From Bacteroidaceae bacterium (GTDB taxonomy: Bacteria; Bacteroidota; Bacteroidia; Bacteroidales; Bacteroidaceae), in the NCBI GenBank assembly GCA_017556585.1, contig JAFYMP010000045.1, positions 1 to 36,198 on the forward strand: a DNA stretch of 36,198 nt, read 5' to 3'. The notes beneath the pieces were generated by a model, which worked only from the letters and a program-made list of their open reading frames with translations, was not told the origin of the DNA and did no database searches. Both the position numbers and the translations under genes were made by a program. Positions 1,439 through 18,975 of this stretch are shown in pieces. The number at the start of each line of letters is the position of its first letter. Within the stretch, counting starts at the first letter, position 1.

Positions 1439-1630
1439 TTACTCTTCTGTCTGCTGGAGTTTCTGTACGTAGATAGCGTGTTCCATCTTGAGACGCTTCA
1501 GTTCTGATGGTTTATCAAACTGCTGACGACGTCTTAGTTCTTTAACAACACCTGTCTTTTCGTACTTTCTTTTAAATTTTTTGAGAGCGCGTTCAATGTT
1601 TTCACCCTCTTTTACTGGAACAATGATCAT
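1439..1630 (-). CDS. rpsU: 30S ribosomal protein S21
   Basis: This 63-residue basic protein starts MIIVPVKEGENIERALKKFK and carries the S21 core KYEKTGVVKELRRRQ with a charged C-terminal helix. S21 binds the 30S platform near the anti-Shine-Dalgarno end of 16S rRNA. In Bacteroidota, where Shine-Dalgarno use is low, S21 has been reported to help hide the anti-SD sequence; that is family knowledge, not visible here. The length is typical. A two-part promoter lies upstream (1686-1716) and a terminator follows (1359-1392). The stop codon sits inside a small inverted repeat GAGTA/TACTC on the coding strand. Confidence 0.97.
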   Translation of the reverse strand: MIIVPVKEGENIERALKKFKRKYEKTGVVKELRRRQQFDKPSELKRLKMEHAIYVQKLQQTEE

Positions 1631-1778: not shown

Positions 1779-4700
1779 TTAAGGAGTGGGTTGCTGACCT
1801 ATCTGAACTTTAGTTGCACCGGTAACTTTTCCTTGATTACCACCACCATAAACATTTCCACCTATAGTTCCATCCAGTATAGTTACCGATGTATCACCCT
1901 CTACATCTGCAGCGTTACCACCACCAAAGACAGTATTTTCTACAATACCGTTTTCCATCTTCACAGTAGTGTTACCTTTTACTGCAGCAGCATTACCACC
2001 ACCGTAAACAGTTCCAATCACACCAATCTTTCCCTTTTCATGAACGGGTAAGGTTACTTTACTACCGTCGCTAAAAGTAATGGTTTGTCCATTATAAGCC
2101 CAATCTCTTTCTCTATTATCACCCTCTTTAACGTCGATGTTTACGGTAGGATTACCTTTCACTACAGCATTTTCACCAAATCCACCACCAAACACATTAC
2201 CAATACTGGTGAACGATATCAAGTTGATAATAGGATCGTCCTCACCTTCCGGAGTAGTATAAGGTGCTTGGTTACCACAACCATAGAGTTCACCAATAGT
2301 AATAGGATTACAGCCGGTCTCTTCAATAGTCACTGTAATAGAACCATTAATTGTACCACCTATATTATTACCACCAAACACGCGGTCAAAATGGCCACTG
2401 GAGATAGTAAGATTAATATCACCCTTTACATCGGCATTGCGTGCTCCACCATAGATCTCTTCCAGAGCCTCAATACAACCTAACTCTATTTTTGAATCAC
2501 CATCCATATAGGCTTCGTTACCACCGCCATAGATGCCACCAACATTAAGCGGACAGGTACCGGCATTATCAACATAAGCAAGTGATTCCGTTACCACATT
2601 TCCTTTGGTATTGCTGGCACCAAACAGATTATGAACAGTACCACCTAACACACTGGCTTTAGACATACCGGTTCCATACTTACCATTAGCTGTATTCTGT
2701 TGGTATGCCACAGCATCTATAATACCTACGTCGGCACCGGGATTATCATACCATGTGCTGCCTCCGTCCAGTTTATATTTGTCTTTACCATTACCACCAC
2801 CAAATACATTGCCTATCTCATAACTACCTAAAACAATCACATCGGTTGCTGGGGTTGGAGCAGCATTACCGCCACCATAAACATACTCAATGCTTGCTTC
2901 GTCACAAGCATCAATAACCACCTGGACAGGTTTGTCTGTATTATCATGAGCGGCAGCAGTATTGACATCTATTTTATATGATGAGAATTGACCTTCAGCA
3001 AATTGATCTGTTGGATTATATGCAGCTAAGTTACCACCACCATATACTGCATTCAGCTCGTAAACGCCACTATTCTTGTTCGGCTTTGCCTTTATATTGC
3101 CCTCTCCGTCGCGTGCCACTGTGTTGAGCACCTGAACCAGCACCGTTCCCTTGGGCGAACCGTTTATGTTGTTGCATCCGAACACGCGGCCCGAGGTCGG
3201 GATTACATTGCCTTTGTCGTCAGTAGTTGTTGCCAGAACAAAAGCTGTTCCATCAAGCGTCACGGTAACATTACCATTGACATCTGCTTCTGTTTCGCTA
3301 TCGCCAAGACCACCGCCGTAGGCATCGCCATGAATAATACCACCCGTCAGATTCACGACTGTTGTGTTGGAAGTGTTTGTATTTACCGTACCCAATGCCG
3401 AGCCACCATATACATCACCGTAAACGGTGCCTCCTTGGATATTGACAGCTACGTTACCAGACACTTGTGTATCCTTACCATAACCGCCACCATGCACATT
3501 GGCATGTGCAGCATCCGTACCGATAGTACCATTGGTCAAAGTTACAGTGGTGTTACCTACAGCACCGCTGGCATTACTACCGCCATAGACACCGCTTGCG
3601 ATGGTTCCACCAGTTATATCCACAACACCATTCTCCGATACACCGGCAGCATTACCACCACCAAATACGCTTCCAGCAACTGCTCCAGCAATAATGTTCA
3701 CGTCAGTAGAGCCTGTCACTTCAGCAGCATCGCCACCACCAAATACGTTCTGGCTCACGACAACAGTGCCTCCTGATTCCTGGTTAATATTAACTAATGT
3801 AGTTCCGGTAACAATAGCTTTATCTCCTAAACCACCACCAAAGACACTACCTGTAACAGTTCCATTCAGAATGTTAACTGCAGTTTTTCCCGAATAAGGT
3901 GCCAAGTTACCTGCACCATAAACATTACCTAAGGCGTTGACACCGCAAGTACCTGTCCAGTCAACATTTACTACAATATCTCCACTTACATTTCCGCTGG
4001 CGTTATTACCACCAAATACGCGTGAGATATTTCCGCCAGTGATATTCAGTGTAATACCGCTATTAATATCGGCAGCATTGGCACCACCATAAACATCGCC
4101 AATTCCTTCACCGTCACCACCTGTACAGCCAATGGTTATCGTACCTGCATTACCTGCGGCTTCGTTACCACCGCCATAGACTTCAGCAATGTGCATTTCA
4201 CATTCTCCCTCCTTAGTGATATTCAAAGAGATGTTTCCTGTTATATTACCCATGCTGTTACTTCCACCAAACACCTTATCTATAGTACCACCATGTATAT
4301 TAACAAGTACATCGCCATTAACGTCAGCACCAATGCTATTTTCCTTATAACCATGACCACCGCCAAATACATAGCCTATAGTGTTTCCACCCCAGACTGT
4401 TACATTAGTACCATTCACAGCAGCTGCATTACCACCACCATACACGTATTCGATACTATTGTCACATTTATAAATTGTCACCTTTGGATAACCTTTTCCG
4501 TATGTATAAGCAGCCTTATTACCACCTCCATAAACCGCATATAGTGCATACTGTCCTTCAGCAGGAGCCGGATCTGTAGCATTTATATTTACAATAACTG
4601 AATGCTGTGGAGCACCATTAATATTATTTGCACCATACACACCACCTGAACCTTCCTCAGCGGTTTTCTTAACACTACCACCATTGACAGTCACAGTTAC

Positions 4701-7700
4701 AGGGGCATATACGTTGGCTGCAACTTCGTCACTACCCAATGCACCACCATATAGTGAACCATATATAGTTCCCTTATTAAGGGTTACATTAGTGTGATAA
4801 GTATCATTTGCAGATGTACCATTAACTGTACCCAATGCAGATCCACCATATACATCACCATAAATTTCAACACCACCTTCTGTTTGATTTGATTCGCCGA
4901 TTAAGATGTCAACATTGCCTAAAACGCCTGTCTCCTGTCCATAACCGCCACCATGCACGTTGGCATGTGCTGCATCCGTACCAATAATACCGTTGGTCAA
5001 AGTCACAATAGTATTGCCCACAGCGCCGCTGGCATTACTACCACCATAGACACCGCTTGCAATCGTACCACCAGTGATGTCCACAACACCATTCTCCGAT
5101 ACACCGGCAGCATTACCGCCACCAAAGACACTACCACTGACAGCACCATTGATGATGTTGACATCGGTTGATCCCGTTACAGCTGCAGCATCACCGCCAC
5201 CCAATACATTCTGGGTCACCATTACGCTATGGCCATCGGCACTGCCGTCGATATTCACTTTCGTAGTACCAGTAACAACAGCAGTTGCACCCAAGCCACC
5301 ACCGTAAACGCTACCTGTAACAGTTCCGTTCAAGATATTAACCTCCGTATTGCCTGAGTATGCAGCTTGGTTTCCTGCACCATAGACATTGCCCAGCGCA
5401 TTAACGCCACAAGTACCAGACCAATCTACATTTACTTGGATATCACCATTAATAGAACCGCTGGTATTATTACCACCAAACACGCGTTTGATATTTCCGC
5501 CAGTGATATTCAATGTGATGGGTGTATTAATATCAGCTGCATTTGCACCGCCGTACACATCACCGATACCTTCTCCTTCACCACCAGTACAAGCAATGTT
5601 TATCGTACCTGCATTACCAGCAGCTTCGTTACCACCACCATAAACTTCTGTAATATGCAATTCGCAAGACTCATCACCCTTTTCAATGATCAAGTTGATG
5701 ACACCACCAATATTACCCTTACTGTTACTTCCGCCGAATACCTTATTAATAGTACCACCAGTAACAAGTACATTTACATTACCATTCACATTGGCCTCGG
5801 TCTGAGGTTCGGCATCCTTATCACCATGTCCGCCACCGAACACCATACCAGTGATTTTTCCGCCATCGATAGTCACACTAGTAGCGCTCACATCAGCGGC
5901 ATTACCACCACCATAAACGTTGCCTATCTGTGTATTGCAATCATTCACAACTTTTACCACTGGAGTTCCTACAACGTTGGCTGCATCACCACCACCATAA
6001 ACGTCGCCAGTTACAATAGCCGTATGGCTTGCATTATTGTCACCAATGGTTACTTGAGGATTACCATAAACGATGGCCGATTCACCTAAGCCACCACCAA
6101 AGACGTGACCAGAAACAGTTCCATTGAGTATGTTTACAGCAGGATAATTGCCCTTGTTGCTAGAAGCACTTCCATATTGAGCGAGGTTTCCTGCGCCATA
6201 CACATTGCCCAAGTAGTTAACTCCACAAGGATTTTCAGTGTTCCAATTTACATTAACCACAATACCACCACTAATTGAACCACTGGCGTTATTACCACCA
6301 AATACGCGATTAATCTTACCGCCAGTAATATTCAGTGTGATATAACTATTGATATCAGCAGCATTGGCACCACCATAAACATCATCAATGCCTTCTATTT
6401 CTGAGCCGGTACAGCCAATTGTTATCACACCGGCATTGCCTGCGGCTTCGTTACCACCACCATAAACTTCCGTAATATGCAATTCGCAAGACTCATCACC
6501 CTTTTCTATATTCAAAGCAATTGTACCGGTTATATTACCCTTACTGTTACTACCGCCGAATACCTTATTTATAGTACCACCGGTAATATCAAGATTTACA
6601 TTACCATTTACATTGGCCTCAGTCTGTGGGTCGGCATTCTTGTCACCATGACCGCCACCGAATACCATGCCGGTGATAGTACCACCATCAATATTCACAT
6701 CAGTACCTTCCACGTCTGCTGCATTACCACCACCATAGACATTGCCAATAGTGGTGTTGCACTTGTTCACGACATTCACAACAGGTATTCCTACCACATT
6801 ACCAGCATCGCCACCGCCGTAGACATCGCCCTTGACAATAGCCTCATAGCCTGCATTAGATTTGTCGCCAATAGTCACTGTCGGATTACCCGTCACTTGA
6901 CCCTTGCTGTGGTCATTGGCATCACCCTTACCACCACCATAGACGTTGCCGCTGACTTCGCCGTTGAGGATGTTGACTGCAGGGGCACCGCTATATTGAG
7001 CGAGGTTACCGCCTCCAAAGACGTTGCCGACATACCAACCGCAGGTTTCTTCGTTCTTATTTACATTCACCGTTATGGTTCCGTTGATACCTCCGCCGGT
7101 ATTATTACCGCCAAAGACATTGGCCACCATACCACTGTTGATATTCAGTGTTATGCCACTGGCATTTGTAACATTCGCATTGTTGGCGCCTCCATACACC
7201 GCACCGATACCTTCAAGTATCTTACCTATATTTTCAGGATGAGCTGCGTGGCCTTCGTCACCTTCAACAAGCGCTCCCGTGCAGCCAATGGTTACCGCAC
7301 CGGCATTACCATCAGCCTCGTTACCACCGCCATAGACCTCTCCAATGCGCATATCACAAGCACCATCCTTGTTAATGTCCAAGTTTATGGTACCACTGAT
7401 ATTACCTTTACTATTGCTTCCGCCAAACACTCTCTTAATGGTGCCACCCTTAATAGCTAGATTTACATCTCCTTCTACATTGGCTCCTGGGCCATCTTTA
7501 TAGCCATGTCCGCCACCAAACACATTGCCAATGACGTTGCCACCCCAGATGGTCACATTCGTAGATTTTACCGCTGCTGCATTACCACCACCATAGACAT
7601 ATTCTATGCTGTTGTCGCAACCATGAACAGTTACAGTAGGATAACCATTACCGTAAAGATAGTCAGCTTGGTTTCCTCCGCCATAGACGGCATAGAGAGC

Positions 7701-10700
7701 ATATTCCCCCTCTGCAGGAGCAGGATCTGTGCCGTAGATATCCACAGTTACCGAGCGTTGTGGCGCGCCATTGATATTATTTGCACCATATACACCACCG
7801 GAACCTGCTACCGATGTAGCCTTCACGCTACCGCCATGCACCTCTACTTTCACCGGACCATTTACGTTGGCCGCTACGGAAGCACTTCCAAGACCACCTC
7901 CATAAAGCGAACCATTAATGGTACCTTTATACATGGTAACGTAGGTGTGATCATTCGCATCACTATTTACTGTACCCAGTGCCGAGCCACCATATACATC
8001 GCCATAGACGGTAACGCCGCCTGTGGCTTGACCTTCAGTGCCGAGAGTAACCTCAACATTACCACTAACCCGAGTGGCTTGTCCATATCCACCACCGTGG
8101 ATATTGGCAGGTGCAGATGATGTACCTACCTGACCTCCGTTGATTTGCATGGTGACATTTTCTGAAATAGTGCCAGTAACATTGCTTCCGCCATAAACAC
8201 CCTTATCAACTTGTCCGCCTATCATATTGACATTGACAACTACACCTTGTTTCTGGTTAGAGCCACCAAAAACAGAACCTGCCACTTCGCCTCCAGTCAC
8301 ATAAACTGAGGCTATTGCATTAGAATAACCATAGTTACCACCACCATAAACATTATTTTTAATATAACTATCATCAGCAATAACAACATTTGAGTTATTT
8401 ACTTGCCCAGTCGTAGCCTGTGCTGAATTACCACTGCCTGCACCAAACACATTACCATCTAATGATGTATTAAGCGTCAAATCCGTAGCATTACCAATAT
8501 GTGTATTTCCACCGACATATATGTATGTATCAGAAGGTAACGTACCACCTGATTGCCCCGGATCTGTTCCATTACAACCTGCGGCAATCCATCCATTAAT
8601 CTGACCTCCTGTGAAAATCATACGTCGAATACCACTAGATGCCGCAAATGCACCAGAACCATAAACCACGCCGCGAACCTGACCTCCTGTCATTCTCACG
8701 AAAAAAGATTCATTGTTTGCAGGATTATTACTATCAATACCACCGGCAATACCTGACAATATACCACCTTCCACATAAAGCATACGTTTACCAATGTTCG
8801 TTTGAGCACCTCCCGAACTGACATAAAATACCTGATTAGCATCACCGTAATAACCCCCATTAGGAGTACCTTGATTATTAAAAGTAGTGTTCGTAACATT
8901 TGTTTCTGAACATAGATTGCCACTCTTCACCCAGCATGTAAAGGTTGCATTATTTTGATTTCCGCTTCCGTATGTGGGTTGATAACCTAAGAACAATTCG
9001 TCTGATATTATAAGTTTAGTATTGTCTTCTTTTGCACGGTCATAATCGTTGCCCAGTGTGCCTTTTATCTGATTGGAAGTACCATTACACCTGACATAAC
9101 CAGCTGTTTCTTCTGTTCCAGCAATAAAGGAAACATCAGTAAATTTACCACTCTCTAATTTAAGATGATAATTAAGATTTACGTTATAAGACGGTGATCC
9201 ATAATTATTTGTAGAACTGTTAACACCTGTTACATAATTAGCACACTGTGAAGTCGTAACCATACCTCTACCTATAGTGACACTGTGATTATTGCAGTTT
9301 AATGTATTCTGCGAATTCCACTTCGCATACTCTATCTTCGTTACACCATCATTGTTAGGGGTAATATTCCCAGTAAACGTATAATTATCCCTGTAATCTG
9401 GATCAGCACCTGTAGCATTAGGCTCTACCATCATAATGGTCACAGGCTGAGATAAGGTCAATGTGCCTGAATAGTTCCTGTTTATTACTAAGAAATTATT
9501 TTCATATGTGGTAGTAGAACTGCCATTTGTAATATTGAAGGTATAATTGTTGTTGCTATTATTTACCGTTGCTAAATATGTAACTTTGGCATTCACCCAT
9601 GTAGCCTCAAACACAATCTCTGCGGAAATACAATTCGTGCTTGGATAAGGTAGGTTGACGAATGTGATTTCTTGGTCAAGTGGTAACGTACTGCCATTAT
9701 TGTAGCCATTGATGTATTCGCCACCGCTAATAATCTTCCAACCGCCGAAACCCTTGCCTGTGGGGCGCTTGCTGAAGGGGTTAGAAATTACCGTATAGGG
9801 ATATTGCCCTGCTGTAGCGCCTTGCTCCAATGTCTTGAAGTAAACAAATGATGTCTCGCTCTCATCAATGGATACTGCACCTCCATTGGCGTTATACGTA
9901 ATCTTTACATTGCGAGGATTAGGGCTATAGAGCTTGCCAACATAATTGTCGTTATAGTTTCCACCATCAACAGCTCTATCCACACCGCTATAGTAAGTCC
10001 AGTTGTGGTCTTCGAGGTCATTCAACGTGACGACTCCGCCATCTACACCTGTAGGCCTAGAGGTCTCATACGTACGGCTAGCAACACTTGAGTTGATGTA
10101 CCCAGATTTTACAGCCATAGCTTTTACGGTTACCTTCTCGTCTACTTCAAAAGGGTTTTCGTAAAGGTTCGAAGACGTGGTAGGATCACTGCCATCTATT
10201 GTATAATAGATAGTTGCGCCTTCGGTAGCACAGGTTATAGTTGTCAAGGCTTTTGCTCCGTTGGATTCATACTCAATCGTTGGAGTTTTTACCCTTTCTG
10301 CAACGGTGATATTGACAGTAGTACTACATGCATTAGTCGTGCCGTCTTTTGCTTTTGCAATAAGAGTAAGAGTAGCATTACCCATAGCGACAGGATGCAA
10401 TGTCACTTTACCTCCGCTTGTGGGAGTGGTAACTACGGTAAAGATTCCCGTGTTGCTACTCGTTGCCTCCACCTTGTCGTAAATAGGGGTTGTTCCCGTG
10501 AGAATATAACTGATGTCGTCGTCTGTAGCTACAGCCAATGAGAAGTCGCTGGCAGAGATGGCGGTCGGGGTATTACCTGACTGTTGTAGGGTTATTGTTG
10601 TTGTGGCTGTCTTTGTTACACCATTTCTAGAGACACTACATGTTAAGGTCAACTCAGTCTCGGTTGCAGGCAAACTATTTACCGTAATAGCACCCGTAGA

Positions 10701-11429
10701 TGCGTTTACAGTTGCGTAACTATTGTTTGAAATTGTCCAAGTGTAGCCTTCATTGATAGAGGGCAGATTGTTGGTCGGTACTGTGGTTGTAGCCGCTTGA
10801 GAAGCATTGGTGCTATAGTATGTCTTGTTGTTAAAACTGTAGGTATCATAGTAGGTGGCATTGGTATGCGTATAGTTGTAGGTACCGACCGTTTTGATCG
10901 TGGCATCACCAGAAATTGTAAGGTTGTTGATAACCGAAGAAGTGGTGACGGTATAGGCAGTTGCTCGACTGTTATTACTATCAGACATGCGCCATTGTCG
11001 ATTGCTATTATTTGCATTTCGCATGTTCAGATAATAATATGTATCGCCCCACCTTCCTTCTTCAACATAGGCGATATTATTATTGGTAATCGTGAGATTC
11101 GTTCCTGTAGTCGTACTGAAAGCCAACCCATCATTATATCGAATGTAAACATTCTTTGCATTCCTAAACGTGCTTCCCGATGTCCCCGAATAGATACTAG
11201 CATTGGGCACGAAACTCGTTGTCGGAGTTGTTGATTCCCCAAGAAAATAGGTGTTGTTGCCATTCGTATAAGTGAATACATAGTCGGCCGCCCTGGCACC
11301 TAAAACAAAGGTGAGTAGGAGAAGGGTGAGTACGGCAAAGCGTTTTGTGAAGTTTGATATACGGGATGAACTTGATGCACTGTTTTGCACTGCACCAAAA
11401 ACGTTAGTTTTATTCATAATTTGTAGCAT
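1779..11429 (-). CDS. Giant secreted GGG-repeat solenoid protein, function unknown
   Basis: This is a single open frame of about 3,216 residues. I prefer the start at 11429 (MLQIMNK) because AAGGA lies 7 nt upstream; ATG at 11417 is possible. A signal peptide (TKRF, a leucine-rich core, then LGARA before ADYV, about residues 30-47) predicts export. Bacterial Ig-like sequence follows (about 230-375), then a chitobiase C-terminal-like segment (about 380-460; ATIYYTIDGSDPTTSS) and an InlB/Flg_new-like segment (about 505-620; YNANGG, FGGW, ATW). From about residue 920 to the end there are about 70 copies, by hand count, of V[YF]GGG[NHDL]A spaced about 30 residues apart, alternating with strands such as VNIxGGTIxG. 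This suggests a beta-solenoid. The protein ends in the repeats (VQIGQQPTP) with no T9SS C-terminal domain, LPxTG motif or lipobox visible. It is divergent from porP. Adhesin or surface layer is inference; I do not recognise a named homologue. Confidence 0.9.
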   Translation of the reverse strand: MLQIMNKTNVFGAVQNSASSSSRISNFTKRFAVLTLLLLTFVLGARAADYVFTYTNGNNTYFLGESTTPTTSFVPNASIYSGTSGSTFRNAKNVYIRYNDGLAFSTTTGTNLTITNNNIAYVEEGRWGDTYYYLNMRNANNSNRQWRMSDSNNSRATAYTVTTSSVINNLTISGDATIKTVGTYNYTHTNATYYDTYSFNNKTYYSTNASQAATTTVPTNNLPSINEGYTWTISNNSYATVNASTGAITVNSLPATETELTLTCSVSRNGVTKTATTTITLQQSGNTPTAISASDFSLAVATDDDISYILTGTTPIYDKVEATSSNTGIFTVVTTPTSGGKVTLHPVAMGNATLTLIAKAKDGTTNACSTTVNITVAERVKTPTIEYESNGAKALTTITCATEGATIYYTIDGSDPTTSSNLYENPFEVDEKVTVKAMAVKSGYINSSVASRTYETSRPTGVDGGVVTLNDLEDHNWTYYSGVDRAVDGGNYNDNYVGKLYSPNPRNVKITYNANGGAVSIDESETSFVYFKTLEQGATAGQYPYTVISNPFSKRPTGKGFGGWKIISGGEYINGYNNGSTLPLDQEITFVNLPYPSTNCISAEIVFEATWVNAKVTYLATVNNSNNNYTFNITNGSSTTTYENNFLVINRNYSGTLTLSQPVTIMMVEPNATGADPDYRDNYTFTGNITPNNDGVTKIEYAKWNSQNTLNCNNHSVTIGRGMVTTSQCANYVTGVNSSTNNYGSPSYNVNLNYHLKLESGKFTDVSFIAGTEETAGYVRCNGTSNQIKGTLGNDYDRAKEDNTKLIISDELFLGYQPTYGSGNQNNATFTCWVKSGNLCSETNVTNTTFNNQGTPNGGYYGDANQVFYVSSGGAQTNIGKRMLYVEGGILSGIAGGIDSNNPANNESFFVRMTGGQVRGVVYGSGAFAASSGIRRMIFTGGQINGWIAAGCNGTDPGQSGGTLPSDTYIYVGGNTHIGNATDLTLNTSLDGNVFGAGSGNSAQATTGQVNNSNVVIADDSYIKNNVYGGGNYGYSNAIASVYVTGGEVAGSVFGGSNQKQGVVVNVNMIGGQVDKGVYGGSNVTGTISENVTMQINGGQVGTSSAPANIHGGGYGQATRVSGNVEVTLGTEGQATGGVTVYGDVYGGSALGTVNSDANDHTYVTMYKGTINGSLYGGGLGSASVAANVNGPVKVEVHGGSVKATSVAGSGGVYGANNINGAPQRSVTVDIYGTDPAPAEGEYALYAVYGGGNQADYLYGNGYPTVTVHGCDNSIEYVYGGGNAAAVKSTNVTIWGGNVIGNVFGGGHGYKDGPGANVEGDVNLAIKGGTIKRVFGGSNSKGNISGTINLDINKDGACDMRIGEVYGGGNEADGNAGAVTIGCTGALVEGDEGHAAHPENIGKILEGIGAVYGGANNANVTNASGITLNINSGMVANVFGGNNTGGGINGTITVNVNKNEETCGWYVGNVFGGGNLAQYSGAPAVNILNGEVSGNVYGGGKGDANDHSKGQVTGNPTVTIGDKSNAGYEAIVKGDVYGGGDAGNVVGIPVVNVVNKCNTTIGNVYGGGNAADVEGTDVNIDGGTITGMVFGGGHGDKNADPQTEANVNGNVNLDITGGTINKVFGGSNSKGNITGTIALNIEKGDESCELHITEVYGGGNEAAGNAGVITIGCTGSEIEGIDDVYGGANAADINSYITLNITGGKINRVFGGNNASGSISGGIVVNVNWNTENPCGVNYLGNVYGAGNLAQYGSASSNKGNYPAVNILNGTVSGHVFGGGLGESAIVYGNPQVTIGDNNASHTAIVTGDVYGGGDAANVVGTPVVKVVNDCNTQIGNVYGGGNAADVSATSVTIDGGKITGMVFGGGHGDKDAEPQTEANVNGNVNVLVTGGTINKVFGGSNSKGNIGGVINLIIEKGDESCELHITEVYGGGNEAAGNAGTINIACTGGEGEGIGDVYGGANAADINTPITLNITGGNIKRVFGGNNTSGSINGDIQVNVDWSGTCGVNALGNVYGAGNQAAYSGNTEVNILNGTVTGSVYGGGLGATAVVTGTTKVNIDGSADGHSVMVTQNVLGGGDAAAVTGSTDVNIINGAVSGSVFGGGNAAGVSENGVVDITGGTIASGVYGGSNASGAVGNTIVTLTNGIIGTDAAHANVHGGGYGQETGVLGNVDILIGESNQTEGGVEIYGDVYGGSALGTVNGTSANDTYHTNVTLNKGTIYGSLYGGALGSDEVAANVYAPVTVTVNGGSVKKTAEEGSGGVYGANNINGAPQHSVIVNINATDPAPAEGQYALYAVYGGGNKAAYTYGKGYPKVTIYKCDNSIEYVYGGGNAAAVNGTNVTVWGGNTIGYVFGGGHGYKENSIGADVNGDVLVNIHGGTIDKVFGGSNSMGNITGNISLNITKEGECEMHIAEVYGGGNEAAGNAGTITIGCTGGDGEGIGDVYGGANAADINSGITLNITGGNISRVFGGNNASGNVSGDIVVNVDWTGTCGVNALGNVYGAGNLAPYSGKTAVNILNGTVTGSVFGGGLGDKAIVTGTTLVNINQESGGTVVVSQNVFGGGDAAEVTGSTDVNIIAGAVAGSVFGGGNAAGVSENGVVDITGGTIASGVYGGSNASGAVGNTTVTLTNGTIGTDAAHANVHGGGYGKDTQVSGNVAVNIQGGTVYGDVYGGSALGTVNTNTSNTTVVNLTGGIIHGDAYGGGLGDSETEADVNGNVTVTLDGTAFVLATTTDDKGNVIPTSGRVFGCNNINGSPKGTVLVQVLNTVARDGEGNIKAKPNKNSGVYELNAVYGGGNLAAYNPTDQFAEGQFSSYKIDVNTAAAHDNTDKPVQVVIDACDEASIEYVYGGGNAAPTPATDVIVLGSYEIGNVFGGGNGKDKYKLDGGSTWYDNPGADVGIIDAVAYQQNTANGKYGTGMSKASVLGGTVHNLFGASNTKGNVVTESLAYVDNAGTCPLNVGGIYGGGNEAYMDGDSKIELGCIEALEEIYGGARNADVKGDINLTISSGHFDRVFGGNNIGGTINGSITVTIEETGCNPITIGELYGCGNQAPYTTPEGEDDPIINLISFTSIGNVFGGGFGENAVVKGNPTVNIDVKEGDNRERDWAYNGQTITFSDGSKVTLPVHEKGKIGVIGTVYGGGNAAAVKGNTTVKMENGIVENTVFGGGNAADVEGDTSVTILDGTIGGNVYGGGNQGKVTGATKVQIGQQPTP
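3450..5400 (-). repeat. In-frame duplicated block, offset 1461 nt (487 codons)
   Basis: The coding for AGVSENGVVDITGGTIASG and the following VYGGSNASGAVGNT and GTDAAHANVHGGGYG segments occurs twice, around 3480-3680 and 4945-5140, with few differences. Matching points at 3567 and 5028 give an offset of 1461 nt. Divergence is low compared with the rest of the array, so this duplication or homogenisation looks recent. Confidence 0.85.
4155..8110 (-). repeat. In-frame duplicated block, offset 3153 nt (1051 codons)
   Basis: The block coding for HGGGYGQ, YGDVYGGSALGTVN, GSLYGG, VYGANNINGAPQ, DPAPAEG, YALYAVYGGGN, CDNSIEYVYGGGNAA and FGGGHGYK occurs around 8110-7320 and again around 4965-4155. Matching points at 7774 and 4621 give 3153 nt, again a multiple of three. 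A third, more diverged copy (FGCNNINGSPKG) lies near 3160-3190. Confidence 0.8.
5230..6750 (-). repeat. In-frame tandem duplication, period 822 nt (274 codons)
   Basis: Two consecutive modules, each running from NVYGGGNAADV through HGDK, SNSKG, NEAAG, ANAADI, AGN and GLG, are closely similar. A 35-nt block at 5650-5684 is identical to 6472-6506, an offset of 822 nt. The offset is a multiple of three, so duplication kept the frame. A more diverged earlier module precedes them in coding order. Confidence 0.85.
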
Positions 11430-11716: not shown

Positions 11717-12670
11717 ATGAATTCAACAAAGAGAAAGTACTTTCTTGCAGCACTGCTGTTTGTCTCAATAAATCTGTATGCTCAGTATGATGCACACTTT
11801 TCACACTATTGGGCTGTAGAGAATCTGTATAATCCGGCTGCTATGAACAAAAATAGCAAACTGAACATAACAGGTTCATACGCTATGCAGATGCTTGGTT
11901 ATACCAATGCACCCGGATCTATGTATTTTGGTGCAAATACCGTACTTCCGTTTGACCGCGCACGCCATTCGGGAGCTGTTATTCTGATGAACGAAAACAT
12001 AGGTCTCTTTTCTCATAGACGTCTGCTTATAAACTATGCCTACAAAGTAAAGTTAGGCAAAGGTTGGTTGAATATGGGTGTTCAGGGGGGCGTAATGAAC
12101 GAAGGTTTTGAATACGACGAACTTGAGATAACAGATAAAAACGACCCCGCATTTCCAAATTCCGGAGCCGATGGTTCCGGTGCCGATATAGGAGCAGGAG
12201 TGTATTATTACAACAATGGTTATTACTTAGGATTATCTGCCACACACCTTAATTCTCCGCGTGTTTATTACAGCAAAGAGGGCGACAGAGCAGCCTATTT
12301 GGATATAAAACCTGCATTTTATTCTATAGGTGGATGCAATATCCGATTAAATAATCCGTTATTATCTTTGCAGCCTTGCTTTCAGGTGGCCACAGATGGC
12401 GAATATACAAGAGCCGATATTACGCTACGAGGCACCTACGAATATGAATTGTCAAGGTTTTTTGGAGGAGTGACATATTCACCCGGCACATCGGTAACAG
12501 TTTTGTTAGGTGGTATGTATAAGCAGGTTACCATTGGTTATGCCTACGAACTCTTTACAAGCGGAGTAGGAGCAATTAACGGTAGTCACGATTTGGTAGT
12601 AAGTTATTCAATGGATGTAGATTTCTTTAAAAAAGGTAAGAACGTCCATAAGAGTGTAAGATACTTGTAG
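11717..12670 (+). CDS. porP: PorP/SprF family T9SS outer-membrane protein
   Basis: This 317-residue protein has a signal peptide (MNSTKRKYFLAALLFVSINL, then YAQ) and the family hallmark just after it: QYDAHFSHYWAVENLYNPAA. Alternating beta strands follow, as in a barrel. PorP/SprF proteins sit in the outer membrane; some are needed for export of particular T9SS cargo, and newer work links them to cargo with type B C-terminal domains. The gene heads the run porP-gldK-gldL-gldM-gldN, with 22 nt to gldK, so it is the first gene of the core operon. It is divergent from the giant repeat gene. No standard promoter box is visible upstream. The 314-320 residue size is normal for the family. Confidence 0.92.
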   Translation: MNSTKRKYFLAALLFVSINLYAQYDAHFSHYWAVENLYNPAAMNKNSKLNITGSYAMQMLGYTNAPGSMYFGANTVLPFDRARHSGAVILMNENIGLFSHRRLLINYAYKVKLGKGWLNMGVQGGVMNEGFEYDELEITDKNDPAFPNSGADGSGADIGAGVYYYNNGYYLGLSATHLNSPRVYYSKEGDRAAYLDIKPAFYSIGGCNIRLNNPLLSLQPCFQVATDGEYTRADITLRGTYEYELSRFFGGVTYSPGTSVTVLLGGMYKQVTIGYAYELFTSGVGAINGSHDLVVSYSMDVDFFKKGKNVHKSVRYL

Positions 12671-17605: not shown

Positions 17606-18235
17606 ATGAATATTAAAAAATGTGCATTTATCATTGGACTGTTAGCTATATGCAGCAGTACATTGTTTGCCCAAGAAGTAGAAACAAAAGGCAAAAACGG
17701 AGCTTGGTTTACCATTAAGGGAGGTTTAACATTGGCAGACAATGACATTAACCACATAACCGCATCAAACATAGGCGAAGAGAACAGCTACACAGGTTTC
17801 TTTGTAGGTCCGGCTTTAAGTTTTCAGGGAAAACGTCTGTTGGGTCTGGATCTTGGAGCAATGTATTCACACGTTGGAATGAAGGTAGAAGGTGGCGACA
17901 ATTATAAGAATGATTACCTGATGTTGCCTGTATCACTTACATTGAACATTGGTGTAAAACATTTCAGTATCCTTGGTTTGGTTGGCCCACAATGGAATGT
18001 AAACATTGGTGCTTTGGAAGAGTTCTTTGTAGAAGGCGAACAGATAGAATCAAAGAGAATTAACACTACTGCCAATGTTGGCGTAGGTGTAAGAGTCCTG
18101 AATAAGGTAGATGCTATTTTGAACTACAACTTCCCATATTCTGTTGTAAAAGACAATATCGATGATTTTGAAACTATGACAAATATGGTAGATAGATACA
18201 AGACTATACAGTTTATGTTAGCCTGGAGATTTTGA
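17606..18235 (+). CDS. Small outer-membrane beta-barrel protein (PorT-like family)
   Basis: This 209-residue protein has a signal peptide (MNIKKCAFIIGLLAICSSTL, then FAQ) and alternating hydrophobic strands typical of the outer-membrane beta-barrel family that also includes PorT. The segments FTIKGGLTLADNDIN and SYTGFFVGPALSF mark the first strands, and the protein ends in aromatic Phe (LAWRF), a normal barrel C-terminus. I chose ATG at 17606; a TTG three codons upstream is in frame but unlikely. The next gene is a paralogue sharing SYTGFFVGP. The position just after the T9SS operon, with its own promoter, makes a T9SS role possible but unproven. Confidence 0.85.
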   Translation: MNIKKCAFIIGLLAICSSTLFAQEVETKGKNGAWFTIKGGLTLADNDINHITASNIGEENSYTGFFVGPALSFQGKRLLGLDLGAMYSHVGMKVEGGDNYKNDYLMLPVSLTLNIGVKHFSILGLVGPQWNVNIGALEEFFVEGEQIESKRINTTANVGVGVRVLNKVDAILNYNFPYSVVKDNIDDFETMTNMVDRYKTIQFMLAWRF

Positions 18236-18267
18236 CAGAATTTTATTAAACTATAAATTTAAAGACA

Positions 18268-18975
18268 ATGAAAAAGTTATTTGCAGTTTGCGGTTTGGCA
18301 TTATTGATGACCATTCCTGCTTCAGCACAGTTCTCATGGGGTATCCGTGCAGGTGTAAACGCTGTTAACAATGATATAACAGCTATAGATAAAGAGACTG
18401 TAGTAAGCAAGGATAGCTATACAGGTTTCTTTGTAGGTCCTATGATGGAATTCCAGATTCCTATCATTGGTGCAGGCGTTGATGCAGCTATTCTCTATTC
18501 ACAGAAGGGTATGGAAATAGCAGAAAAAGAGACTATCAAAGAACAGGCAATTGCTATTCCTGTAAGTTTGAAATACACTCTTGGTTTGGGTAATTTCCTG
18601 GGCGCATTTGTTCAGGCCGGTCCTCAGTTGAACTACAACCTTGGTGAACTGACTACACTTTATCAGGAAGATATCAAGGGTGACAACCTTCAGTCAGGTT
18701 TTGCAGATGTTAAAGAGTTTGCTATGAACAGAATGGTATGGAGCATGAACTTAGGTGTTGGTGTTAAGCTGTTCAACCACTTGCAGGCAGCTGTAAACTA
18801 CAACATTCCTCTTACTCCAAGCGGTGCTTATACTCTGTATGAGAATGTTGAAACAGGCGCTAACGACAATGCCAGCATTCTGGACAGAATAGAAGCTGCA
18901 GGTAAGGCAAAAGATACAGCAGAAGAGGCTTACAAATCAAGAGTTCTTCAGTTCTCTGTAACTTATACATTCTAA
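18268..18975 (+). CDS. Small outer-membrane beta-barrel protein, paralogue of its neighbour
   Basis: This 235-residue protein has a signal peptide (MKKLFAVCGLALLMTIPASA) and barrel strands such as FSWGIRAGVNAVNND, SYTGFFVGPMMEF and FVQAGPQLNYNLG, ending VLQFSVTYTF with a terminal Phe. It shares the SYTGFFVGP segment and strand order with the preceding protein, so the two are probably tandem duplicates that diverged. The gap is 32 nt with no promoter seen, so they are likely co-transcribed. A strong terminator follows at 18998-19035. It belongs to the same broad family as PorT; no specific function can be assigned. Confidence 0.85.
   Translation: MKKLFAVCGLALLMTIPASAQFSWGIRAGVNAVNNDITAIDKETVVSKDSYTGFFVGPMMEFQIPIIGAGVDAAILYSQKGMEIAEKETIKEQAIAIPVSLKYTLGLGNFLGAFVQAGPQLNYNLGELTTLYQEDIKGDNLQSGFADVKEFAMNRMVWSMNLGVGVKLFNHLQAAVNYNIPLTPSGAYTLYENVETGANDNASILDRIEAAGKAKDTAEEAYKSRVLQFSVTYTF

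What the first reader, a model, noticed from the sequence alone, without database searches (positions are those of the whole stretch)
1779..11429. A 3,216-residue secreted GGG-repeat protein of unknown function beside a complete T9SS core operon
Seen: signal peptide, Ig-like and InlB-like N-terminal segments, then about 70 V[YF]GGG[N/H/D/L] repeats to the very end, in one unbroken frame of 9.65 kb. Known: gliding bacteria export giant repetitive adhesins such as SprB by T9SS, with a PorP/SprF protein encoded nearby. Inference: this is a new-looking solenoid surface or secreted protein. Its repeat does not match any named repeat I know.
Basis: partly seen in the sequence, partly recalled or inferred. 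Interest (0 to 1): 0.75.

Follow-up and report, generated by a model that had tools for sequence, protein, structure and literature searches.

The report
Giant open-ended solenoid surface protein
A gut Bacteroidales genome encodes a 3,216-residue secreted rod built of about 70 stacked glycine-rich turns; its relatives usually sit next to fimbria genes and a second giant that carries a secretion tag the rod lacks, which suggests that the two form one very large surface appendage.

Summary
Window 1779-11429 (minus strand) is one open frame of 3,216 aa: a signal-peptide-like start, head domains (only Fn3_assoc/CHB_HEX_C_1 confirmed), then 69 glycine-rich coils to the last residues. The exact motif given occurs 30 times. 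No Pfam or NCBIfam model covers the repeat. AlphaFold2 gives a confident beta-solenoid for the last 450 aa (pLDDT 84, pTM 0.85); Foldseek finds no significant PDB match.

The interpretation needs changing. The protein (class A) has no recognisable T9SS sorting domain (0 of 16 class A C-termini), and its place beside porPKLMN is an insertion between porP and rpsU that six congeners lack. Elsewhere class A usually follows a second giant, class B (about 3,800-4,400 aa), which starts in a homologous solenoid, ends in a marginal T9SS-type sorting domain and lies at the end of a type V (Mfa-like) fimbria cluster. Strong A and B hits fall in the same 15 of 392 sampled genomes, none with only one. The window genome has its own B, split over two contigs.

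Best reading: A is the head-bearing rod of a T9SS- and fimbria-linked surface appendage. Open ends suggest, but do not prove, stacking of A on B.

The parts
1779..11429 (-). Class A giant solenoid protein P0001, 3,216 aa, stop codon included
11286..11429 (-). Signal-peptide-like region, residues 1-48 (basic n-region, hydrophobic core about 31-43, A-R-A)
   Evidence: sequence read by eye; no SignalP
10068..10241 (-). Fn3_assoc / CHB_HEX_C_1 domain, residues 397-454
1782..8450 (-). Solenoid: 69 glycine-rich coils, residues 994-3216, most often 25 or 26 residues apart
7524..8273 (-). Module X1, residues 1053-1302 (module borders set by eye)
   Evidence: X1-X2 69% identical
6666..7523 (-). Module Y1, residues 1303-1588
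   Evidence: Y1-Y2 69%
5844..6665 (-). Module Y2, residues 1589-1862
   Evidence: Y2-Y3 70%
5052..5843 (-). Module Y3, residues 1863-2126
   Evidence: Y3-Y4 79%
4371..5051 (-). Module X2, residues 2127-2353
3591..4370 (-). Module Y4, residues 2354-2613
2808..3590 (-). Module X3, residues 2614-2874
1782..2807 (-). Module Y5, residues 2875-3216; lies in the conserved C-terminal region of class A
   Evidence: 16 sequences; model of residues 2767-3216
1782..1853 (-). Terminal coil, residues 3193-3216: the conserved end inside a coil (V/I-Y/F-GGGN..xVxGxTxVxIG plus a short tail)
1439..1630 (-). rpsU (S21), neighbour of porP in six congeners; A is inserted between them
11717..12670 (+). porP (TIGR03519), first gene of the T9SS operon porP-gldK-gldL-gldM-gldN (to 17488); a neighbour only by insertion of A

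Best explanation
P0001 is the head-bearing rod ('class A') of a surface appendage made from at least two giant proteins. Shown by computation: it is a long repeat protein with a predicted beta-solenoid fold, N-terminal head domains and a conserved C-terminus that stops inside a coil with no recognised sorting domain; a class B giant with a homologous solenoid at its N-terminus and a T9SS-type sorting domain occurs in exactly those sampled genomes that have A; B ends a type V (Mfa/Fim-like) fimbria gene cluster. Inferred: B is exported by the T9SS and anchored at the surface or built into the fimbria, as Mfa5 is in Porphyromonas gingivalis; A is exported by Sec and reaches the surface with or through B, or by a T9SS signal not recognised here; A projects its head (Fn3_assoc, in relatives also ricin-like or GLUG/M26_N-type modules) to bind glycans or other cells. 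The open end of A may stack on the open N-terminal edge of B, so that two chains form one continuous rod.
For: Fold: AlphaFold2 of residues 2767-3216, pLDDT 83.9, pTM 0.85, 11 of 12 motif starts in a strand. Pairing: in 101 family genomes the 11 with A (E<=0.001) are exactly the 11 with a strong B C-terminus (E<=2e-44; next best 1.7e-18); in 295 order genomes the 5 with strong A (E<1e-90) are exactly the 5 with strong B (next best 4.4e-12); together 15 of 392 distinct genomes, 7 genera. Gene order: B followed on the same strand by a class A or M giant in at least 18 distinct loci. Tag: 9 of 10 C-termini scanned match TIGR04183 (E 5e-8 to 0.024; 2 of 10 reach the cut-off; one of the ten, L008, is a single-chain protein, not a B); class A C-termini 0 of 16. 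Fimbria locus: Mfa_like_1, Mfa2/DUF5119, FimA, DUF3575. Own B: 3,063 aa on C13 and 755 aa on C19, each cut by a contig end, taken as one gene; its end matches TIGR04183 at 21.1 bits, below the cut-off. A and B solenoids are homologous (hhalign probability 99.3, E 1.5e-20). L008 (horse MAG) is a single chain with an A-type head and solenoid and a TIGR04183 domain of 32.8 bits.
Against: No route for A across the outer membrane is shown. The sorting domains of B are marginal by TIGR04183: of nine B-type C-termini seven score 22.6 bits or less, one 23.3 and one does not match (cut-off 23). With the B profile 48 of 101 and 67 of 295 genomes have some hit at E<=0.001; I count only the strong ones and take the rest (1.7e-18 and weaker) as generic C-termini, on the gap in E-values alone. 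The profiles were built from some of the same genomes (G208, G387 and G000 among those counted). G208 (96% complete) has A and B but no GldL or GldM hit. In the window genome A and B are on different contigs, so co-transcription is not shown. No Pfam family, vWA included, was found in the B of the window genome or of G208. Heads are weakly annotated, and nothing on expression or location was available. The genomes are related, so the co-occurrence is not a set of independent events.
Confidence: 0.6

Rival explanations
1. A is an independent T9SS cargo with a degenerate or 'short' sorting signal formed by its last coil (G..VYGGG...TxVxIG resembles the G.Y...K.V.V end of sorting domains by eye). 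B is merely a second cargo.
For: Short CTDs of 40-55 aa with three strands are reported in Prevotella intermedia (PMC11969387, passages). The A end is tightly conserved. GldM is present in 28 of 30 A-positive genomes. L008 shows an A-type rod with its own CTD.
Against: 0 of 16 A ends match any NCBIfam sorting model; hhalign of A ends against B C-termini gives probability 0.1; the last coil has the same motif as the internal coils. A short-CTD profile as such was not available to test.
Confidence: 0.2
2. A is exported by Sec only and acts in the periplasm, or is released in vesicles, and is not part of an appendage.
For: Signal-peptide-like start and no recognised outer-membrane export signal.
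Against: Pairing with tagged B and fimbria genes; adhesin-like head modules; related frames up to 11,862 aa would be odd in the periplasm.
Confidence: 0.12
3. SprB-like giant adhesin driven by gliding motors.
For: Very long and repetitive, in a genome with GldKLMN.
Against: No sorting domain; the T9SS neighbourhood is an insertion; B lies at a fimbria locus. No search for gliding-specific genes was made.
Confidence: 0.05
4. The repeats are expanding low-complexity DNA with little function.
For: Length varies widely among A- and M-type relatives, 727 to 11,862 aa.
Against: Modules are mostly closest to a module of another protein (same-protein nearest neighbour in 7 of 75); a frame stays open over 35 kb; 69 invariant columns in the C-terminal alignment of 16.
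Confidence: 0.03

Closest known systems
Mfa5, T9SS-exported tip protein of P. gingivalis Mfa1 (type V) fimbriae (PMC7835359, PMC8313007: passages read)
   Same: Class B, like mfa5, is the last gene of a fimbrillin cluster, has a Sec-type start and a T9SS-type CTD, and is much larger than the fimbrillins. P. gingivalis can carry two mfa5 genes in tandem.
   Different: No vWA or other Pfam domain was found in the two B proteins scanned; B is about three times the length of Mfa5 of ATCC 33277 (3,684-bp gene) and starts in a glycine-rich solenoid. I know of no class A counterpart there.
SprB and other giant T9SS adhesins of gliding Bacteroidota (recalled, not compared by sequence)
   Same: Giant, repetitive, secreted, in genomes with GldKLMN.
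   Different: No sorting domain in A; fimbria-locus partner; T9SS neighbourhood not conserved.
Beta-helix surface proteins: autotransporter passengers, tapirins, pectinase-like proteins
   Same: Stacked coils with two strands and a loop in the model; adhesin-like role by analogy. Many of the weak Foldseek rows are of this kind.
   Different: No significant structural match (best E 0.88; TM 0.28 or less in all 28 rows), no Pfam beta-helix family.
Listeria InlB B-repeat / Fn3_assoc head modules
   Same: Fn3_assoc / CHB_HEX_C_1 is present.
   Different: InlB repeat not confirmed.

Membership tests
T9SS cargo (type A sorting domain) | C-terminal sorting domain (TIGR04183) in class A | tested here: not met
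   0 of 16 A C-termini at E<=1; P0001 whole: none
T9SS cargo (type A sorting domain) | C-terminal sorting domain in class B | tested here: inconclusive
   8 of 9 B-type C-termini match TIGR04183 at E<=0.024, but only L011 reaches the curated cut-off; L002 does not match. Own B 21.1 bits, below the cut-off
T9SS cargo (type A sorting domain) | T9SS core in the genome | tested here: met
   PorP, GldK-N in the window; GldM in 28 of 30 A-positive genomes, absent in G208 and G400
T9SS cargo (type A sorting domain) | Sec signal peptide | tested here: inconclusive
   typical core and A-x-A by eye, long n-region; no predictor available
SprB-type gliding adhesin | sorting domain (recalled as part of the definition) | tested here: not met
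   no NCBIfam sorting domain
Type V (Mfa/Fim) fimbria cluster | fimbrillin, anchor and DUF3575 genes next to B | tested here: met
   PF13149 in 6 of 9 lipoproteins scanned upstream of the window genome's B; Mfa2/DUF5119, DUF3575, FimA among three clusters
Type V fimbrillin | P0001 itself is a fimbrillin (PF13149 / PF06321) | tested here: not met
Mfa5 | vWA domain at the N-terminus (in genotypes A-C only) | tested here: not met
   no Pfam family in B of the window genome or of G208
Beta-solenoid / beta-helix proteins | stacked strands, regular coils | tested here: met
   AlphaFold2 model of residues 2767-3216; prediction only, coordinates not inspected
Known beta-helix superfamilies | sequence or fold match to a described family | tested here: not met
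   Pfam, NCBIfam, PDB sequences, Foldseek PDB; VIA-align library not available

The most novel reading that the evidence does not exclude
A split solenoid: giant chains with complementary open beta-edges that assemble end to end outside the cell into one continuous rod. Class A (head, open C-end) stacks on class B (open N-end, T9SS anchor), sometimes with a middle class M that starts in a coil and has no CTD (for example 11,862, 6,442 and 6,267 aa). The phases fit: not counting short tails A ends about 19 residues into its last coil, and in 9 of 14 B- or M-type starts (cleavage site read by eye) the chain begins 6-7 residues before its first motif, together about 25-26 against the commonest coil spacings of 26 and 25; the other 5 starts have more residues. 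One CTD-tagged subunit would then carry untagged giants, a new way to build T9SS-linked appendages.
Probability: 0.25. Interest if true: 0.85.

Novelty: new variant of a known kind. Interest (0 to 1): 0.62.

Why it matters
It makes an unnamed repeat testable as a structural family: a solenoid without a close solved structure at the sensitivity used, found only within the order in the samples searched, paired with a CTD-bearing partner at fimbria loci. If right, it links type V fimbriae, the T9SS and giant rods in one system, shows how a protein without a CTD may reach the surface, and includes frames up to 11,862 aa. Eight of the 13 named source records are MAGs whose titles give a ruminant or horse gut sample, so a role in holding on to plant particles or host surfaces in the herbivore gut is a natural, untested guess.

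Tried and rejected
T9SS neighbourhood as a functional link: rejected. porP-rpsU-xerC-hpf is contiguous without A in 6 of 10 congener regions fetched (two of the six genomes, G398 and G423, have A elsewhere); 3 regions (G361, G379, G341) show no rpsU, xerC or hpf in the fetched DNA; in G403 A begins beside porP and the contig ends inside it. Against this rejection: GldM lies on the A contig in G329 (about 55 kb away) and on the B contig in G331 (about 14 kb away). No direct or inverted repeats of 11 bp or more between the two A flanks.

Recent slippage growth of repeats: not supported by the module tree.

Plasmid carriage: tblastn of the last 450 aa against plasmids, no match. Spread outside the order: 1 of 395 phylum genomes, the window's own.

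T9SS enrichment in A-positive genomes: uninformative, since GldL is in 268 of 295 order genomes anyway.

Weak A hits dropped before the co-occurrence count: G108 (5.4e-6; a B-type N-terminus cut by the contig end) and G175 (1.6e-7, not resolved). Weak B-profile hits dropped: 37 of 101 family and 62 of 295 order genomes.

The counts still contain the first three pairs. Its regular expressions mislabel some starts as 'dom' (the window genome's B, the B of G329, G414 and G415, and the 1,191-aa protein of G111, which starts in a coil); I read those by eye.

Literature: searches listed no paper that I recognised as being on this repeat or protein pair in the open-access library; I saw listings, and passages of three papers. 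In one search 20 of 41 papers were listed, many on antibodies. Subscription papers and bioRxiv are not covered.

Not obtained: structure of the N-terminal head (A2), answered busy every time; Foldseek against viral models; VIA-align (library absent). The output was cut in the middle, so parts of G354, G329 and G303 were not seen there.

Full report
Observation. The frame at 1779-11429 lies on the minus strand, is unbroken and codes for 3,216 aa. It starts with a signal-peptide-like stretch, has Fn3_assoc / CHB_HEX_C_1 at 396-454, and from residue 994 to the end consists of coils that mostly begin V-Y/F-G-G-G/S/A. There are 69 loose motifs, 40 GGG and 30 exact V[YF]GGG[NHDL]; 1,000 shuffles of the region give at most 11 loose motifs. 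The commonest spacings are 26 (11 times) and 25 (10 times). Coils group into larger modules (borders set by eye): X Y Y Y X Y X Y, each about 230-340 aa. Y modules share 44-79% and X modules 52-69% identical residues, X with Y only 33-40%.

What the repeat is. Nothing in Pfam or NCBIfam covers it, and a profile of 16 class A C-termini finds no PDB sequence. AlphaFold2 of residues 2767-3216, with 16 sequences, gives mean pLDDT 83.9 and pTM 0.85. By its strand pattern the model is a solenoid in which each coil has a strand ending in VYG, a glycine loop and a second strand of the type TxVxI; 11 of 12 motif starts lie in a strand (the coordinates themselves were not available). Residues 396-421 and 447-450 of the model are below pLDDT 50. 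Foldseek against the PDB gives 28 rows, none at E<=0.001; the best is E 0.88 (a tapirin), and many of the others are beta-helix proteins such as autotransporter passengers and pectinases. So the model is a beta-solenoid, and no close solved structure was found at this sensitivity. Repeats are hard for Foldseek, so this is not proof of a new fold.

Relatives. One scan gave 13 loci, all titled as Bacteroidales, Bacteroidaceae or Prevotellaceae MAGs. Reading their frames shows two kinds of giant. Class A, like P0001, ends ...NVYGGGNxAxVTGxTxVxIG plus a few residues: of 15 A proteins listed, 14 stop 19-24 residues after the start of their last motif (two, both from L012, on a variant strand, VKLE and VEMK), and one L007 protein has a 41-residue tail. 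In the wider table, duplicates included, 32 frames end 19-26 residues after their last motif; that group was defined by a limit of 30, and 11 further frames without a called CTD end later, by tails, by variant last coils or otherwise. Class B starts in a coil soon after its signal peptide and ends in a T9SS-type sorting domain. Of ten C-termini scanned, nine match TIGR04183 (E 5e-8 to 0.024), two reaching the cut-off of 23 bits (L011 23.3, L008 32.8; L008 is the single-chain protein described below, the other nine are B-type), while none of 16 class A ends does. Profile comparison of A ends with B C-termini finds nothing (probability 0.1), but the A solenoid and the B N-terminus are clearly homologous (probability 99.3, E 1.5e-20).

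Pairing. In 101 genomes of the family, A is found in 11 and a strong B C-terminus (E<=2e-44; the next hit is 1.7e-18) in the same 11. In 295 genomes of the order, strong A (E<1e-90) and strong B (next hit 4.4e-12) are found in the same 5; two weaker A-profile hits, G108 and G175, were left out. The B profile also gives weak hits in 37 and 62 further genomes, which I take to be generic C-termini. With four genomes common to both samples this is 15 of 392 genomes, from 7 genera, with none carrying only one strong hit. Some of these genomes gave rows to the profiles. Under independence the overlaps would have chances of 6e-15 and 6e-11, but the genomes are related, so these are not true P values. 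In the genus A is found in 16 of 37 genomes (B not tested there); in a phylum sample only in the window's own genome (1 of 395). GldM is present in 28 of 30 A-positive genomes; G400 (62% complete) and G208 (96%) lack it, and G208 also lacks GldL.

Place. B lies at the end of a type V fimbria cluster: DUF3575, DUF5119/Mfa2 anchor-like, FimA-like and Mfa_like_1 proteins. A profile made from ten lipoproteins of the window genome's cluster hits genes upstream of B in 14 other contigs (L004, G208, G211, G111, G293, G306, G372, G354, G377, G108, G420, G395, G414, G415), but not in G303 or G387 in the output I saw. B is followed on the same strand by a class A or M giant in at least 18 distinct loci: L002, L003, L004, L006, L010, L011, G420, G395, G211, G111, G293, G306, G372, G303, G387, G398, G415, G414, in some with one or two small genes between. 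In G208 A lies on the other side of the fimbrillin array and is divergent; in L005 A is likewise divergent beside such an array, with B not in the fetched DNA. The window genome has its own cluster: the row of ten lipoproteins and the first 3,063 aa of B on contig C13, and a 755-aa B C-terminus on contig C19, both cut by contig ends and taken by me as one gene; no A follows it on C19.

Why A sits by the T9SS here. In six congeners porP and rpsU are direct neighbours (115-118 bp apart in the four measured), followed by xerC and hpf. In the window A lies between them, and in sister genome G403 A begins beside porP; L001, which I take to be the other end of the same locus from its frame length, has A followed by rpsU, xerC and hpf. 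The rpsU leader of the empty sites is still recognisable in the window's flank.

Heads and variants. N-terminal parts of ten class A proteins from other genomes carry Fn3_assoc in nine of ten; hits to ricin-type lectin in three, M26_N or GLUG in four and Big_2 in three, some below Pfam's cut-offs. A third kind (class M) starts in a coil but has no CTD: G398 11,862 aa with 231 motifs, G415 6,442, G313 6,267, L012 2,682. L008 from a horse MAG is a single chain with an A-type head and solenoid followed by other sequence and a TIGR04183 domain of 32.8 bits, which suggests that an A-type rod can be a T9SS cargo. Modules are mostly closest to a module of another protein rather than to their own neighbours (7 of 75 in the same protein, shuffle mean 2.1, maximum 8; of P0001's five Y modules four are closest to G208 or L001, and Y1 to Y2), so most modules look old.

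Mechanism. Mfa5 of P. gingivalis is the precedent: a tip protein of type V fimbriae, last of the mfa genes, carried by the T9SS through its CTD (PMC7835359, PMC8313007; passages). By position and tag, class B works like Mfa5; it is not a member of that family by any domain found here. Class A would be the head-bearing rod that works with B. The ends are suggestive: not counting tails A stops about 19 residues into its last coil, and in 9 of 14 B- or M-type starts the chain begins 6-7 residues before its first motif (by eye; the other five, G211, G293, G303, G313 and G108, have more), together one coil of about 25-26 residues. Two open edges in matching phase would allow A to stack on B. By rough reckoning such a fit within one residue would come by chance in about one case in nine, so this is a hypothesis, not a result. 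How A crosses the outer membrane is unknown; a short or degenerate sorting signal, as the short CTDs of Prevotella intermedia (PMC11969387, passages) make conceivable, is the main rival.

Verdict.

Noticed in passing
G398 contig C104:35259-70844 (loci L147-L149): One open frame of 11,862 aa with 231 glycine-rich motifs that starts in a coil and has no recognised sorting domain, in the same genus. Among the largest bacterial frames I know of (recalled).
   Followed up: partly
L008:9983-21181: Single-chain relative with A-type head and solenoid plus a TIGR04183 sorting domain (32.8 bits); its second half does not match B.
   Followed up: partly
L010:5376-6563, L085:18016-19284, L094:7079-8353, L129:11291-12448: Genes of about 390-425 aa that look alike by eye, between or beside B and A; one of four matches Y1_Tnp (IS200-like transposase, E 8e-5), the others only weak PKD hits. 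Possibly a mobile element near these giants.
   Followed up: partly
G208 (L009, L066, L067): A and B with a CTD in a 96% complete genome with no GldL or GldM hit, although G108 and G291 of its family have GldL. Assembly gap or loss of the T9SS.
   Followed up: no
L027 and L093 (window genome contig C13:9220-20055): Ten similar lipoproteins in a row upstream of B; 6 of the 9 scanned match Mfa_like_1.
   Followed up: partly
L130 (G331 contig C127): The B gene fragment lies about 14 kb from GldM on one contig.
   Followed up: no
window 17606-18972: Two outer-membrane beta-barrel proteins of the TDE1717 type (below cut-off) directly after gldN.
   Followed up: no
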